Of a DNA stretch of 64,000 bases, positions 56,828-64,000 are shown piece by piece. Under the pieces are notes generated by a model. It searched no databases. It saw nothing but the letters and a program-made list of their open reading frames with translations, and was not told the DNA's origin. The stretch is taken from NCBI GenBank assembly GCA_937124965.1, contig CAKZLB010000010.1, positions 1-64,000 on the forward strand. Direction: 5' to 3'. Position 1 is the first letter of the stretch. Each line of letters opens with the position of its first letter. This DNA is from an uncultured Bacteroidota bacterium. Lineage in GTDB: Bacteria > Bacteroidota > Bacteroidia > NS11-12g > UBA9320. The position numbers and the translations under genes were made by a program.

Positions 56828-58528
56828 TTAGAAAGTAAAGTAATAACTAATACTGCCTATTTGGCTTACGTCAGAACCTCTGTTTTGCTGCATAGCAGAT
56901 AGACTCAAGTTATGACTTTTTTTCATTCTCACGCTTAAACTAACTCTAGAATTGATAACATTGACAGGGTCTATGGCTGAATTTGAGGATGACGTATTGT
57001 TGTAGTTAACAGAAGCTGATATTCGCATTGCCTTTTTAAACAACTTTTTTCCAACGGTAAGAGAAGGTCCTTGCGTAATAAACTTGTCTTCTGAAACCAT
57101 ATTATGGGTGTAAAAGTACCCAGTCACAATATCAACATTGCTACGGTTGTTTTGAAACGCATGTGCTAAGCTTACATTGTAAAATGTATTACTTCCACCT
57201 GGTTGTTCATTGCCACCTTGTTCGGCATAAACGTCTTGGAGTCCAAGATTTGCAATTAAACTATGTGATAAACTATCCTTCTGTTTTAAAACATAAGTAG
57301 AGTTGATATTTAAGTTTTGCGAAATCTGCGTAAAGTTGAAAGTATCTAAAGCCTGATATTGATTTAACTGATTAATAAATTGAAACTGTGACTTTATCCG
57401 CATGAATGTTCTAAAGTTAGAATAGTTTACACCCAGATTAAATCGTTCGTTAGGAGTAAAATTAGTATTAAGTGAACCAACAAAACGTTGATTTGCTCCG
57501 GCTTTATTTCCGTCCAAATCATCTCGTTGAATTCCACCTCGGGCAAAAACAGATAACTTATTCTTCATCATTACTTTTCCTAAATTAAGTGTGATGTTTT
57601 CTAGGTCATTTGCAAAAAAGTAAGCCCCTAATGTTCTGTAACCTGGGTCTATTTTCTCGTATCCAACACCAATTTGATTCGTTTTCTTCTGGTAGTTCAT
57701 ACTGATTTTTTGCGCAGTGTAGTATGCGGTTGAATTATTTTCAGGAAAAACTAGATTGAACATTCCTGAAGTACGTTCTACTACTTCTGATTGGTCGCGA
57801 ATATCTTGAGTAAGAGCGCTCATGGCAAATTCCGTTTTTATCTCAAAACCTTTAAATGGTCGAAATGCAAGATCAACAGTACCAACTAAATTTTGCTGAG
57901 GAACAATACCAAAAGTATCTGGCTGAGTTACCAATGAGTTTTCTCTGTCTTTTGCGGTGAACACATTTAATCCAATATCAAAAATATCTTGAACAAATTG
58001 AACTTTTCCGCCGTATCCCCAACGTTCATAAGCAGCTAACTGATTAGAAAATGCTGAGTCATACTCTACGGCTTGTTGGAATTTTCCTCCCATAGCGCTA
58101 TACCGAAATTTGCGTTTTTGTGGGGCAATTTCAACACCAACACCGGTAAACTGATGCCCATTCAAAGAGTAAGGTGAATACGTCATATTTACATCTCCAA
58201 TATGGGCTGTTACACCTTTATAGGTAGGATGAATGCTTAATCGGGAAGGTGTGTTTGGAACTTTTAATTCTCTATTTGCGTTTGAGATATTCATCGATAC
58301 AGGAATATCGATAGTTTCTAAAATTCTAAGATTTAGGTTTCCAGCTACATTCCAAGTATATGGATTTCTGTTGGCCATTGAATTACCTGCATATCCGATC
58401 ATACCTGCACTTAAACCACCACTTAATTTCAGTTTCTTCTTTTCGTCTAAATTGTTAAGGTCAATTGTTTGTGCCGATAAGGAAGAAGCTACTAAAAGCA
58501 TCGCGGTAAGCTGAAGTAATCGAGTCAT
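56828..58528 (-). CDS. Putative outer-membrane beta-barrel protein
   Basis: 566 residues from ATG 58528, chosen for its signal peptide (MTRLLQLTAMLLVASSLSAQ); ATG 58567 adds 13. Nearly the whole mature chain alternates polar and hydrophobic residues as short strands ('FRYSAMGGKF', 'FKGFEIKTEFAMSA', 'KLSVFARGGIQ', 'RISASVNYNN'). The last residue is aromatic in 'IGSISYYFTF', the usual outer-membrane barrel ending. The family is not recognised. It follows the FN3 protein gene on the same strand by 60 bases and probably forms its membrane partner. Confidence 0.65.
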   Translation of the reverse strand: MTRLLQLTAMLLVASSLSAQTIDLNNLDEKKKLKLSGGLSAGMIGYAGNSMANRNPYTWNVAGNLNLRILETIDIPVSMNISNANRELKVPNTPSRLSIHPTYKGVTAHIGDVNMTYSPYSLNGHQFTGVGVEIAPQKRKFRYSAMGGKFQQAVEYDSAFSNQLAAYERWGYGGKVQFVQDIFDIGLNVFTAKDRENSLVTQPDTFGIVPQQNLVGTVDLAFRPFKGFEIKTEFAMSALTQDIRDQSEVVERTSGMFNLVFPENNSTAYYTAQKISMNYQKKTNQIGVGYEKIDPGYRTLGAYFFANDLENITLNLGKVMMKNKLSVFARGGIQRDDLDGNKAGANQRFVGSLNTNFTPNERFNLGVNYSNFRTFMRIKSQFQFINQLNQYQALDTFNFTQISQNLNINSTYVLKQKDSLSHSLIANLGLQDVYAEQGGNEQPGGSNTFYNVSLAHAFQNNRSNVDIVTGYFYTHNMVSEDKFITQGPSLTVGKKLFKKAMRISASVNYNNTSSSNSAIDPVNVINSRVSLSVRMKKSHNLSLSAMQQNRGSDVSQIGSISYYFTF

Positions 58529-58588
58529 ATTCAGTTGTAAGTTTTTGATAATGTTGGGGTTTGTCATTGCAAATGATTTAGTAGTGGA

Positions 58589-60736
58589 TTAATTCAGACC
58601 TCGTCTTACTGATTGAGAGAAACTCAGTTTGCTTTCTTTTCCCTGTTTATTGATGATAGTTACCGCATAGACATATAGAACTCCGTCTTGCACAGATGTA
58701 TCTGTATAATCGAACGACCCAGGTTTAAGACTGGTAAGTTTTTTGAATCCTCGCTCGTTCGATTTTCTTCTATAGATATTAAAAGATACCCTGTCGGCAG
58801 TTTTAAGTGCTGGGATCGAAACGTAGATTCCTTCTGTAGAGTTTCGAACCATGAAATCCTCAATAAAGTCACTATTACTACTTTCATAATTGAATACGGC
58901 TGATGAACTAAAATCACTTTCATCACCCCTATAAGAGACTGAAGCAACACGATATTCAAATGCATCTCCTGTCTTTATAGTAGAATCGGTATACGAATTG
59001 GTTTTAAGAATTTCTTCGATGCGCTCATAGTTCTCATCGTCGGTACCTTTTTCTTTCTTTTCTAAGATGTACCCATCTATGGCATTATCATATATCCGAA
59101 TATCTTGCCAATTGATATGAAGGTTTCCATTTTCATAATAAAATTCAATATTCTCAGGAGCCTTCATTACAATTTCTTTTGAAGGGTTAATCGATACATG
59201 CTCACTAAACTCGCTTGTGTCTTGAAGGTAATTTTGTGCAATTACTTTGTAGAAATAAGTGCTTCTTCCGCTTAGTGATCCACTGGTATCTATATAAAAA
59301 ATATCTTTTACTGGTCCGTCAAGTAACTTGACATTTGAAGGTTTTGTCCCTCGATAAATATAGTAACCATAGGTGGTTTGTTGAGAAGTATGATCCCAAT
59401 CAAGCCGGACACCGTCTTCTATAGATTCAGCGCGCAAATTTGTTGGAACGTCAGGGGTGGAAAACTTGCTATACTGACCAGTACCTTCTGCTGGTAGTTT
59501 TTGTTCATATTGTATGCCAGCTGTATATACTGCTTTAGCCTTGTAGCGGTATGTTTGTCCAATAGCTAAATCATGGTCTATGATTGCGGTATCTGATTTA
59601 GAAGCATAGCCTACAGTATCAATAACATCATCACTATTAATTTTATATACTAGAACACCTGCCACATATGGTTCTTGTGGTAGTCGCTTCCAACTAATCC
59701 GAATAGCATCTTCAATTTCCGTAACATTTATCCCCTTAAGAATTGGAATATGTTTTTCAGTAATAGTATAGGCGTAAACTGTATCTGACTCTATACCAAT
59801 ATTATATACATCATCTTGAAGCCTGATATATGCTGCCTCAAGTTTGTTAGGAGATGATCGCACATTATAGATAAAAGATAGTTCATCCTCTTTTTCATTA
59901 AGCTGTCCTATAAGAGTTTTAGTGTTGACATACTGACCATTTTTTAATTCGTAAACACTAGCAAACGCTCCTTTTACATTTGCAGCCAAAACTTCGTAGT
60001 GCAACTTTTGATATTCATTTTTGTCAGTTTTAGGTCTTGGAATACTGGTTAGGTATTCTTTAGACACATCAACTTTCCACTGAAAGCTTACCAAACTATC
60101 GGTAACAATAGTTTCTCCACCATTGGCTTTAACATAATCCAGAGCGTAATTCGTATTTCCTGCAGTTATAAACCCAAACCCCCATTGCTCTTCACTTTTA
60201 TCATCATCGTTACGGGTAATGCTATATAAATAATCTGTACCAGGTTCTAATGCAGCATCAACGAATACATGACCTAAGGCAATTCGCACCTTTATATTTG
60301 AGTATAAGAAAGGGTAGTCGGTTGCCATTCTATTGTTTTTAAAATATTTTAGCACATCTTGGTCTTTATCCCCAGGGATCATCTTTTTAATTATTTCAAA
60401 AAAGTCTTCTCCTAGAATACTCTTTAATTCTTTAACAGAATTTGCAGGTTTTAGAACAGATATTACCTGTTGGTACGGATTTTTTTTGTCTGCAATTTTT
60501 GTAGTATCTGAAGGCAACCATGTTCTTTTTATGGTAAACGATTTCGTTGTTCGGATAGCAGTTGAATCATCCGACCCGAATTGAGGGAACCCAAAACAGT
60601 GAACATAGACTTCTTTTTCATTTGATTGGCAAAATATGTATCTGCCTTGCTCTTGCGCCAAAATGCTCACTGGAAACAATAGAAGGGCAACAATTAAATA
60701 TTTTTTTAGCATTTTACTTACGTTCAAATTTTTCAT
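58589..60736 (-). CDS. Exported protein with several fibronectin type III domains
   Basis: 715 residues. The signal peptide is LKKYLIVALLLFPVSILAQ (ATG 60712 is an alternative start). The N-terminal ~320 residues are unrecognised and Lys/Asp-rich ('FGFPQFGSDDSTAIRT', 'EEQWGFGFITAGNTNYALDYV'). Four FN3-like domains follow at about 330-430, 440-530, 535-630 and 635-715, each with a W or Y core and 'D..A..G..Y.Y...A' pattern (for example 'DHDLAIGQTYRYKAKAVYT'). There is no T9SS sorting domain. It lies 9 bases after the giant gene's stop and is probably co-expressed with it. Confidence 0.78.
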   Translation of the reverse strand: MKNLNVSKMLKKYLIVALLLFPVSILAQEQGRYIFCQSNEKEVYVHCFGFPQFGSDDSTAIRTTKSFTIKRTWLPSDTTKIADKKNPYQQVISVLKPANSVKELKSILGEDFFEIIKKMIPGDKDQDVLKYFKNNRMATDYPFLYSNIKVRIALGHVFVDAALEPGTDYLYSITRNDDDKSEEQWGFGFITAGNTNYALDYVKANGGETIVTDSLVSFQWKVDVSKEYLTSIPRPKTDKNEYQKLHYEVLAANVKGAFASVYELKNGQYVNTKTLIGQLNEKEDELSFIYNVRSSPNKLEAAYIRLQDDVYNIGIESDTVYAYTITEKHIPILKGINVTEIEDAIRISWKRLPQEPYVAGVLVYKINSDDVIDTVGYASKSDTAIIDHDLAIGQTYRYKAKAVYTAGIQYEQKLPAEGTGQYSKFSTPDVPTNLRAESIEDGVRLDWDHTSQQTTYGYYIYRGTKPSNVKLLDGPVKDIFYIDTSGSLSGRSTYFYKVIAQNYLQDTSEFSEHVSINPSKEIVMKAPENIEFYYENGNLHINWQDIRIYDNAIDGYILEKKEKGTDDENYERIEEILKTNSYTDSTIKTGDAFEYRVASVSYRGDESDFSSSAVFNYESSNSDFIEDFMVRNSTEGIYVSIPALKTADRVSFNIYRRKSNERGFKKLTSLKPGSFDYTDTSVQDGVLYVYAVTIINKQGKESKLSFSQSVRRGLN

Positions 60737-60745
60737 TGATTCTTG

Positions 60746-63700
60746 TTAAAAACTTACATCAATTTTGGTGGATTGACCTTCACGATAATCAAAAGAAGCT
60801 TTCATGCTCTTACAAATTTTGGCTCCACCTAAAACTGGAAGTGGACATATTTCTTTCGAACACATATCACAATCAGGCCAGCAACATGAACAATTACATG
60901 GGTATGGAATTCCAAACCAGCAAGCTCCCCATGACAAGCTGTAATCATTACAACTTGCGTTTCCAGACCATATCTCCAGGGTGGCATTTGCATTCCCTTT
61001 CATATACCATACTTTGTCATAACCACCTTTAAGGTCTGCGTGTAAAGTTGCTCGCCCATTCAAGTCAAGTGGCCCGAGGGTAACACTTCCGTATGCATGA
61101 GCATCAACATTAACAATTACACCAAAGTTGGTCTCACTAAATTTAGCATAGAACTCGCCTTTCGCAGTTCCCCCAATATCGTATGACATTCCAGCCCTCA
61201 GCTTCCAGACACCCACACTATAATCACCTTTCTTCTGAGGTACGTCTAGAGACGCACTTACATAAAATCCATGTATTCTTTGTCCATTGTTTTCTTTCAC
61301 GAGATCACTAATCAGTGGCCATTTGGTTAAAACCTCTGTCTGCATATTGGGATGATTTTTGTCTACCTGATAACCTAAAGCAAAAACTATATTGCCTGTC
61401 ACAAACTCAAAATCCATTGTTGCATTAATGCACAAGAATAAGCAGCCTGGGTATCTTCCATCTAAACTTGGTGCTGACGCGAAAATGGTACCATTGGCAT
61501 TTACTTTAGCGAAGTTTGGCATAGTTGGTATCATTCCTTTTACATCTAATAAGAAATAACCCGCGCAGAAATCAACCTTCAGTTTAACGGTTACCCATTC
61601 TTCTTTCCGCATAAATAAAGAACCGTTGGCTTCAACAATTACAGGAGGCATTTGTACATCGCCAACTTTCTGACATTCAATCCCTGGTTGGAACAAAACA
61701 CTCAACTCAGCAATTGCGATATACATTGTTTCACGTGTGTTTCCAGAATTGGTTACATCACCATTTAACCATACTTTGTATTTTTCATCAGCTGTATTGA
61801 AATCGAATCCACCACCTATGCTTAGAAAGGTTACTGGTCCTGCTGGTAGTCCTGATGGGCCTAAATGCATGGTGACTTTAGCACCTAACTCAAAGCCACC
61901 AGTTTTGAATTTGTAATATTTAAAGCCAACATCTAATCCGGCGTTCATAACAAGCATTTTCCCTTCTGCTTCAAATCCAACTTTATCGCCACCAAAACTC
62001 ATGGCAACTCGGGCTTCAAGTGTAAATGCAGGATTTTCAAGACCTAAATCTAGTTCGCTAATTGAAAATGCGAATTCGTCATCAACAACCCCAATAAGTA
62101 CACTTGCTTTTACATCGACTTTTAAACCTTTAATTGGGAACCCAACTCCTCCACGAATACCAATGGCCCAATCTGTCTTTGATTCTTCGACGAGGTCGTC
62201 TGGTCCACCCAGGTTTGCAGGAATCTCAGTAACTTCTCCATTCTGAAGCATTGCAGCCATTTGGTCGAAATTGGCTTCATATCCTATATTGACAATTAGC
62301 GCATCAACCTTTACAACCACAACTCCAAAGTCGATTTCTTTATTCGGTCTGGCTGCTAGGAACAAAGACCAATCAGCTGTCTTCAAACTGAAAAGCTGAA
62401 TCTCAATTGGAAATATTTTGGATTTAGCAGCTGTATCTGGTGGAGCATTTGGTTGCGTAGCTGCTTTGTATTCTAGTATTCCAGATGCAGATAGCTCAAA
62501 TGTTTTTTCACTGAAATTAAATTCGAAAGCAATTGCTGCATCTCCTTCAGTTTTAAAGGTCAACCCTTTTACAGAGAAGCCTTTTTCAGGTAGTTGGAAT
62601 TCTCCACCTAACGTTACGCCCTCTGCTTTATTTACGAAGGAAAGTGATATAATTTTCAAGGCATCCTTCATTCCTGCTGTATCAATACCTTCAGGTGTTC
62701 GCTGACGGGGTTGTCCTGGTGTGGTTGTCTTTTTTTGTGTTAACCAAACCAAACCTCCAAGTGTTACCCCGCAATTGGTTGTACCCAACCCCTCAATACC
62801 GATATTAGTAATCTTGGTATTGATTTTCTGTAATCGCATTTCGAATGGTTTTGTTTCAGAAATATCAAATCCAATATCTATTGCATACAGGTTGTTTTGA
62901 ATGTTAAAGACATCCATCGTCATCATACCATTACTATCGGCCATTTGCGAAACACCTTTTGGTATTTGGAAGAACCCTTCCATTTTCATGGCATCAGCGT
63001 CAATAATTACTTTGTTACGATCAATACTTAACCTTAGCGGTCCGAACAATGGTATTCCGATGGTATCTTCACTGTAGGTTTCTTCAACGTCAAAATGTAA
63101 TTTGAATATTTTGGTGTCCGTTAACGAGTTAATTGTCACCTCCTCTGGAACCGCAATACTTATCAAAGACGAAAGAGGGGCTCCTTCAGGGTCATCTACT
63201 TCAAATGGCTCAAACTGATCATCTTTGTCCATTTTGTCAATATCGAGTGCTGAATCAAGAAGGAATGCATCGTATGGAAAGCCATTTAGTATCTTTTGTA
63301 CATGAGCTCTTGCGTATGAAGCCGCCCCAAATACAGTTTTTGTTCTCGTGCCTTTAATTACGCCTATTTCGTAATCTTCTTCGTCTTCAAGGTTTGTAAG
63401 GTGAACCTCTTCAACTTCTACAGGTATGCCGCCATACACTTTCATTTGCATAGTGGCTGTTTCAAAACCAATATCCTGTGTTGCAAAAGCATTCCCGTCA
63501 TCATCTTGTAGTTCAACCAAAACATTTTTAAATTCTAACTCTTCTTCACCATCCATCGGTGTAAAAACATCGTTTTCTGGTACCGTAAGTTTCCCTGAAA
63601 TTTTAACAACATTTGGCTTCTCAGGGTCATCAACAACTTGGCTAGTAGTCTCAACGGCAAATCCGCTCAAGTTAGTTACGGGAGCACTGAAGATCTCTTC

Positions 63701-64000
63701 AAGTTTAAATTCGATATTACCCGCTTTTAGCTCTTCCATGGAGAGCATTTTAGTTTCAGAGTTATATTTTTCTAGTTCAAATGATACCTTCACGGAAGTC
63801 GTGCTTCCCATTGGAATAAGAGCATCACAGATTCCATTTTTGTCAGATTCTCCATTAACATCAAGCCCCTCTACATTAATCTTAGCTCCTTTTAAAGCTT
63901 TTTCTTTTTTCAATGAAATAACCTTAAAGTTTGCTAGAATCCCTTTTTCAACCTCAAGAATTACACTTTGATCTTCTCTAGCATTATTTAGTAAGTCAAA
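60746..64000 (-). CDS. Very large beta-rich exported protein, N-terminus cut by window edge
   Basis: The frame is open from the stop at 60746 to the window edge (1084 residues visible), so the TTG at 63913 is not the real start. Early visible parts look like Ig/CarboxypepD-like modules ('LKGAKINVEGLDVNGESDKNGICDALIPMG', 'VVKISGKLTVPENDV'). The rest has long amphipathic strands with repeated 'F.L...' and Gly-rich turns, as in surface beta-structures. The C-terminal ~50 residues hold a dense Cys cluster ('NCSCCWPDCDMCSKEICPLP'). I do not recognise the family. It is presumably the first visible gene of an operon with the FN3 and barrel genes. Confidence 0.75.
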   Translation of the reverse strand, partial: FDLLNNAREDQSVILEVEKGILANFKVISLKKEKALKGAKINVEGLDVNGESDKNGICDALIPMGSTTSVKVSFELEKYNSETKMLSMEELKAGNIEFKLEEIFSAPVTNLSGFAVETTSQVVDDPEKPNVVKISGKLTVPENDVFTPMDGEEELEFKNVLVELQDDDGNAFATQDIGFETATMQMKVYGGIPVEVEEVHLTNLEDEEDYEIGVIKGTRTKTVFGAASYARAHVQKILNGFPYDAFLLDSALDIDKMDKDDQFEPFEVDDPEGAPLSSLISIAVPEEVTINSLTDTKIFKLHFDVEETYSEDTIGIPLFGPLRLSIDRNKVIIDADAMKMEGFFQIPKGVSQMADSNGMMTMDVFNIQNNLYAIDIGFDISETKPFEMRLQKINTKITNIGIEGLGTTNCGVTLGGLVWLTQKKTTTPGQPRQRTPEGIDTAGMKDALKIISLSFVNKAEGVTLGGEFQLPEKGFSVKGLTFKTEGDAAIAFEFNFSEKTFELSASGILEYKAATQPNAPPDTAAKSKIFPIEIQLFSLKTADWSLFLAARPNKEIDFGVVVVKVDALIVNIGYEANFDQMAAMLQNGEVTEIPANLGGPDDLVEESKTDWAIGIRGGVGFPIKGLKVDVKASVLIGVVDDEFAFSISELDLGLENPAFTLEARVAMSFGGDKVGFEAEGKMLVMNAGLDVGFKYYKFKTGGFELGAKVTMHLGPSGLPAGPVTFLSIGGGFDFNTADEKYKVWLNGDVTNSGNTRETMYIAIAELSVLFQPGIECQKVGDVQMPPVIVEANGSLFMRKEEWVTVKLKVDFCAGYFLLDVKGMIPTMPNFAKVNANGTIFASAPSLDGRYPGCLFLCINATMDFEFVTGNIVFALGYQVDKNHPNMQTEVLTKWPLISDLVKENNGQRIHGFYVSASLDVPQKKGDYSVGVWKLRAGMSYDIGGTAKGEFYAKFSETNFGVIVNVDAHAYGSVTLGPLDLNGRATLHADLKGGYDKVWYMKGNANATLEIWSGNASCNDYSLSWGACWFGIPYPCNCSCCWPDCDMCSKEICPLPVLGGAKICKSMKASFDYREGQSTKIDVSF

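What the first reader, a model, noticed from the sequence alone, without database searches (positions are those of the whole stretch)
56828..64000. Giant beta-rich protein, FN3 protein and barrel: possible uncharacterised surface system
Three adjacent minus-strand genes encode a very large exported beta-structured protein with a Cys-dense tail, a four-FN3 protein lacking any T9SS domain and a barrel ending in Phe. The set looks like cargo or fibre, periplasmic or surface adaptor, and outer-membrane anchor. No family name is clear to me, and none has the sorting domain seen in the other exported proteins here.
Basis: inference. Interest (0 to 1): 0.6.

Follow-up and report, generated by a model that had tools for sequence, protein, structure and literature searches.

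The report
Widespread barrel–TANFOR–FN3 surface protein operon
The three genes at the window edge belong to an operon found across the Bacteroidota that pairs a large outer-membrane barrel with giant 'TANFOR' surface proteins, the class that also includes toxins; this suggests, but does not prove, that the barrel is the missing outer-membrane partner of those proteins.

Summary
Beyond the window edge the giant gene completes to 2,056 aa. Its first ~300 residues are a divergent TANFOR domain, known from a 2020 paper as the N-terminus of Bacteroidota polymorphic toxins. The trio is strongly conserved: in 80 of 80 named loci a homologous ~570-aa barrel is followed directly by a TANFOR gene, and an FN3 gene lies within the next two in 62 of 64 testable cases, from Pedobacter to Ignavibacteria. 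The host genome holds two further trios. Within one genus, all 16 TANFOR-positive genomes carry the barrel, against 1 of 75 TANFOR-negative ones (p = 7e-17). The barrel is predicted as a wide ~26-strand barrel. Just outside the window a fourth gene encodes a T9SS-sorted protein whose tail module recurs next to barrels and TANFOR genes elsewhere. In some islands TANFOR toxins, sorted proteins and the barrel lie together; one toxin ends in a colicin-type DNase. Best reading: a surface-display or delivery complex in which the barrel is the dedicated outer-membrane partner of TANFOR proteins. Whether the barrel is the pore itself, or only a T9SS carrier or anchor, is open. I found no published description of the operon in the library searched.

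The parts
56828..58567 (-). 579-aa outer-membrane beta-barrel (about 26 strands predicted, no separate plug or periplasmic domain, ends in Phe); partner of TANFOR proteins
   Evidence: family found in 71 of 295 class genomes
58589..60736 (-). 715-aa exported protein with four C-terminal FN3-like repeats; third gene of the conserved trio
60746..64000 (-). C-terminal half of the 2,056-aa TANFOR giant (gene continues to contig position 66916): divergent class II body and Cys-rich tail; the TANFOR N-terminus lies outside the window

Best explanation
The locus is a surface-display (and in relatives toxin-delivery) operon. Shown by computation: a T9SS-sorted protein, a TANFOR giant, an FN3 protein and an outer-membrane barrel of about 26 strands are encoded in tandem; the last three form a unit conserved across the phylum; and TANFOR genes are hardly ever found in a genome without the barrel. 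Inferred: all enter the periplasm by Sec, the barrel is inserted in the outer membrane, and it is the dedicated partner that holds, and perhaps passes, the TANFOR protein at the cell surface. The beta-rich giant body would form an extracellular stalk, the FN3 protein an accessory linker, and the T9SS-sorted protein a surface partner. In relatives the TANFOR module also carries antibacterial toxins that would use the same barrel. The window copy has no toxin domain, so it is more likely a structural or adhesive member.
For: Adjacency: 80 of 80 named loci barrel then TANFOR gene, median gap 1 nt; FN3 gene within the next two in 62 of 64. Two further trios in the host genome. Co-occurrence: barrel in 63 of 64 TANFOR-positive against 0 of 16 TANFOR-negative genomes; within one genus 16 of 16 against 1 of 75, p = 7e-17. 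Barrel model pLDDT 87.6, matched to solved outer-membrane barrels including ushers and MtrB. Window giant TANFOR region against the family profile: probability 99.9, E 1e-35. TANFOR proteins, T9SS-sorted proteins, FN3 proteins, barrels and TANFOR-less bodies share islands; one such TANFOR protein ends in a colicin/pyocin DNase. The fourth gene's PKD-sorting module recurs beside barrels and TANFOR genes.
Against: No interaction or localisation is shown. 32 of 88 barrels have no TANFOR gene within 1.5 kb, and some barrels pair with non-TANFOR partners. Co-occurrence is largely linkage within islands, so it shows association, not a transport role. The window giant's own body has no direct sequence relative in 295 class genomes; its place in class II rests on weak profile matches (probability 86). 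The modelled body is a class II relative, not the window protein.
Confidence: 0.55

Rival explanations
1. T9SS carrier model: TANFOR proteins cross the outer membrane through the type IX translocon, and the barrel serves only as a carrier or anchor, as SprF and PorP do for type B substrates. (This and the next rival are sub-versions of the best explanation.)
For: In four loci the barrel lies directly downstream of a protein with a T9SS sorting tail and, in those scanned, PKD and SprB repeats: the SprB-SprF gene order. SprA was found in all 52 TANFOR-positive genomes tested. Cognate substrate-carrier pairs of this kind are published (PMC12618676, PMC9143113).
Against: TANFOR giants have no recognised sorting domain. 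The barrel is larger than known carriers, has no PorP/SprF sequence match, and lacks the Cys-X-Cys tail (2 of 52 have a Cys in the last 30 residues). SprA is in 286 of 295 class genomes anyway, so its presence says little.
Confidence: 0.35
2. Independent pore model: the wide barrel is itself the outer-membrane export channel for TANFOR proteins, a two-partner-like secretion system independent of T9SS.
For: About 26 strands without a plug domain; solved barrels that match over most of its length include the FimD usher (Z 15.7, rmsd 4.2 over 381 aa) and MtrB, both of which enclose other proteins. Near-perfect genome co-occurrence.
Against: No energy source or periplasmic targeting part is seen; no TANFOR-positive genome without SprA was found; some barrels pair with T9SS-sorted proteins.
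Confidence: 0.22
3. Mixed island without joint function: giant, FN3 and barrel are separate surface genes that travel together.
For: Patchy distribution: a same-genus relative of the host has neither TANFOR nor barrel.
Against: Order kept at low sequence identity across classes with near-zero gaps, and repeated copies in one genome.
Confidence: 0.05

Closest known systems
TANFOR polymorphic toxins (Jana, Salomon and Bosis 2020, PMC7073777; NCBIfam TIGR02542)
   Same: Same N-terminal TANFOR domain with a following FN3 domain; T9SS-sorted and FN3 genes as neighbours; toxin-type relatives in the fetched loci end in TNT or colicin DNase domains.
   Different: The window member has a body of about 1,600 aa with a Cys-rich tail and no toxin domain or immunity gene; the parts of the paper read here do not describe the barrel or the three-gene unit. 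The window score is below the curated cut-off (28.6 against 67 bits).
SprB-SprF and PorP carrier pairs of the type IX system (PMC12618676, PMC9143113, PMC12635249)
   Same: A surface protein encoded beside its cognate outer-membrane barrel.
   Different: No PorP/SprF family hit, no Cys-X-Cys tail, and the partner giants lack type B sorting domains.
Chaperone-usher and MtrB-type large barrels
   Same: Similar strand number and a wide barrel.
   Different: No sequence relation found; no usher plug or N- and C-terminal domains in the 579-aa protein; different partners.

Membership tests
TANFOR domain (TIGR02542) | Score above the curated NCBIfam cut-off (67 bits) | tested here: not met
   28.6 bits, E 1e-6; none of 295 class genomes reaches the cut-off
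TANFOR domain (TIGR02542) | Homology of the N-terminal ~300 aa to the TANFOR region of family members | tested here: met
   Profile comparison probability 99.9, E 1e-35 over residues 17-296; 36-41% identity to short, toxin-type members
TANFOR polymorphic toxin | C-terminal toxin domain with a downstream immunity gene | tested here: not met
   No toxin domain in Pfam or NCBIfam; downstream genes are FN3 and barrel. An undescribed toxin domain is not excluded
Type IX secretion substrate | C-terminal sorting domain, type A or B | tested here: not met
   None in the three window proteins; met only by the upstream gene outside the window
PorP/SprF carrier | PorP/SprF sequence family | tested here: not met
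   No such hit among 18 barrels
PorP/SprF carrier | Periplasmic Cys-X-Cys tail (SprF) | tested here: not met
   2 of 52 barrels have a Cys in the last 30 residues; the window barrel has none
Two-partner secretion transporter (TpsB) | POTRA domains before a 16-strand barrel | tested here: not met
   Predicted strands start at residue 46, just after the signal peptide, and about 26 are predicted
Barrel-TANFOR-FN3 unit as defined here | Barrel, TANFOR and FN3 genes in tandem on one strand | tested here: met
   Window locus, in a changed order; canonical order in the named loci
Barrel-TANFOR-FN3 unit as defined here | Surface localisation and complex formation | not testable with these tools
   needs experiment

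The most novel reading that the evidence does not exclude
The barrel is the outer-membrane channel of an unrecognised protein-export system of the Bacteroidota, which sends TANFOR proteins, including antibacterial toxins, across the outer membrane without the type IX translocon.
Probability: 0.22. Interest if true: 0.85.

Novelty: new variant of a known kind. Interest (0 to 1): 0.64.

Why it matters
How TANFOR toxins leave the cell has been open since 2020, when export by the type IX system was offered as a hypothesis (PMC7073777). A barrel that is present with TANFOR genes in nearly every genome tested, and gained or lost with them inside one genus, is a concrete candidate for an outer-membrane partner and can be tested by single-gene deletions. 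It would also give a first functional frame to a large set of unannotated giant surface proteins of environmental Bacteroidota.

Tried and rejected
DUF6603 was suspected for the giant body from sequence style, but the family has no match in the host genome. Sequence searches of solved structures with barrel and giant profiles gave nothing. A contrast by presence of the type IX translocon failed, because SprA is nearly universal. The first contig scan failed because the barrel alignment was too divergent; a closer subset worked. The window giant body found no relatives by direct search, so a class II relative was modelled instead. Its C-terminal sheet resembles walls of outer-membrane barrels but covers only part of such chains, so no claim is made that it inserts in a membrane. 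A text search for 'TANFOR' inside words returned only 'Stanford' papers; whole-word search found one relevant paper and one passing mention. A search for descriptions of a giant-FN3-barrel operon found nothing relevant.

Full report
OBSERVATION. The window is the first 64 kb of a 158,749-bp contig of a 4.09-Mb genome in 79 contigs. With the neighbouring sequence the giant is 2,056 aa (contig 60746-66916) and is preceded, 30 nt upstream, by a 1,274-aa protein with a type IX sorting tail (contig 66947-70771). Gaps of 30, 9 and 21 nt suggest one operon: T9SS-sorted protein, giant, FN3, barrel. The three reported proteins have no sorting tail.

IDENTITY OF THE GIANT. NCBIfam gives a sub-threshold TANFOR hit (28.6 bits, cut-off 67) at residues 34-158. 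Profile comparison settles the homology: residues 17-296 match the family at probability 99.9, E 1e-35. The window TANFOR region is closer to short, toxin-type relatives (36-41% identity) than to most trio giants (24-32%). Pfam adds one FN3 domain and CarboxypepD_reg domains. The body past residue 380 has no direct relative among the other collected giants and residues from about 1000 on have none in 295 class genomes. A profile match at residues 980-1167 (probability 86, E 5e-6) and a Cys-rich tail place it as a divergent 'class II' giant. Class I and class II bodies are themselves related (probability 94.6, E 7e-8).

CONSERVATION OF THE TRIO. A class-wide TANFOR search (21 of 295 genomes) and fetched neighbourhoods showed the order barrel, TANFOR giant, FN3 in nearly all long-giant loci. 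The host genome has a second trio on C29 and a third on C67 whose giant (2,432 aa) has no full TANFOR hit. A scan of named genomes with a barrel subset gave 369 relatives, of which the best 80 loci were kept. In all 80 the next gene is a TANFOR gene on the same strand (median gap 1 nt); of 64 with a complete TANFOR frame and sequence beyond, 54 have FN3 next and 62 within two genes. Hosts include Pedobacter, Mucilaginibacter, Spirosoma, Dyadobacter, Runella, Larkinella, Saprospiraceae, Ignavibacteria and Chlorobiota. These loci were found by a barrel pattern taken from TANFOR-linked barrels, so 80 of 80 is conditional on that. Barrel identity between loci is mostly 21-40%, so order has outlasted much sequence change.

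INDEPENDENT TEST OF ASSOCIATION. A TANFOR profile found 94 of 392 phylum genomes. The barrel profile was then run on 64 of the positives and 16 negatives: 63 of 64 against 0 of 16; the exception had the weakest TANFOR hit. Within a single genus (91 genomes drawn evenly), all 16 TANFOR-positive genomes have the barrel and 74 of 75 negatives lack it, p = 7e-17. Genomes in a genus are not independent, so the p-value is only a guide. Of 102 TANFOR genes, 58 lie within 1.5 kb of a barrel, 26 more within 20 kb, and 18 farther or on another contig. Linkage in islands explains much of this, so it shows association, not mechanism. 32 of 88 barrel hits have no TANFOR gene within 1.5 kb.

OTHER PARTNERS AND ISLANDS. 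Some barrels pair with proteins of about 1,000-1,200 aa bearing PKD or SprB repeats and a type IX sorting tail, in the substrate-then-barrel order of SprB-SprF. Residues 1075-1258 of the window's upstream protein match the profile of those proteins (E 2e-20, profile built without it). A profile of the last ~200 aa also finds a protein directly upstream of a short TANFOR gene in L050 (E 6e-64), which was not in the model. In islands L184, L185 and L191 a sorted protein, a TANFOR protein and a barrel occur together; L185 carries a TANFOR protein ending in a colicin/pyocin DNase domain. In L192 the barrel, a TANFOR-less class I body and FN3 are followed by a separate TANFOR protein, so TANFOR and body can be fused or split. 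L052's short TANFOR protein ends in a TNT toxin domain. No toxin domain was found in 16 long giants.

STRUCTURE. The window barrel is predicted with pLDDT 87.6 and pTM 0.79 as an all-beta barrel of about 26 strands beginning right after the signal peptide. Foldseek and VIA-align match it to many outer-membrane barrels; MtrB has TM-score 0.47, the FimD usher combines long coverage with low rmsd (4.2 over 381 residues, Z 15.7), and AlgE scores Z near 17 over about 300 residues. This shows a large outer-membrane barrel, not a specific function. A class II giant body (L085 residues 750-1945; pLDDT 80.5, pTM 0.59) is all beta: carboxypeptidase-D-like sandwiches near its start (Z 11.4, rmsd 1.6) and a long curved sheet at its end resembling part of a barrel wall. 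The middle was not searched alone.

MECHANISM. Shown: tandem genes, conservation, association, predicted barrel fold. Inferred: Sec export, barrel insertion, barrel as the outer-membrane partner, giant as surface stalk, FN3 as linker, shared use by toxins. Jana et al. (PMC7073777) proposed the type IX system as exporter of TANFOR toxins from neighbourhood statistics, and also found FN3 genes enriched, which the FN3 gene described here would explain. All 52 TANFOR-positive genomes tested carry SprA, so type IX dependence stays possible, but SprA is nearly universal in the class (286 of 295). The barrel lacks the Cys-X-Cys tail through which SprF is linked to the gliding track (PMC12635249), so track attachment by that route is unlikely.

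VERDICT. The TANFOR part is known; the barrel-TANFOR-FN3 unit was not found described in the open-access library searched, which omits most subscription journals and all preprints.

Noticed in passing
G000:C10:71089-73546 (L002:15089-17546, outside the window): A divergent two-component pair (TPR histidine kinase with HisKA_2, and a LytTR response regulator) starts next to the four-gene operon; the C29 trio also has a response regulator and a kinase beside it (L007:2472-5132). Possible regulators.
   Followed up: partly
L083 (G000:C67:47500-67400): Third trio of the host genome with a 2,432-aa giant; by pairwise search such giants (L083, L102) match only the second half of the TANFOR region.
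   Followed up: partly
L184:4044-6500 and L097:8547-10994: Barrels in one genus carry an extra charged C-terminal extension of about 250 aa with no Pfam match.
   Followed up: partly
G304:C7:116496, G320:C39:354448, G397:C91:36412: TANFOR hits inside open frames of about 6,400 aa in distant members of the phylum.
   Followed up: no
L101:10885-14028: A TANFOR protein with a coiled-coil-like body (weak SMC-type hits) beside a barrel, unlike the beta-rich ones.
   Followed up: no
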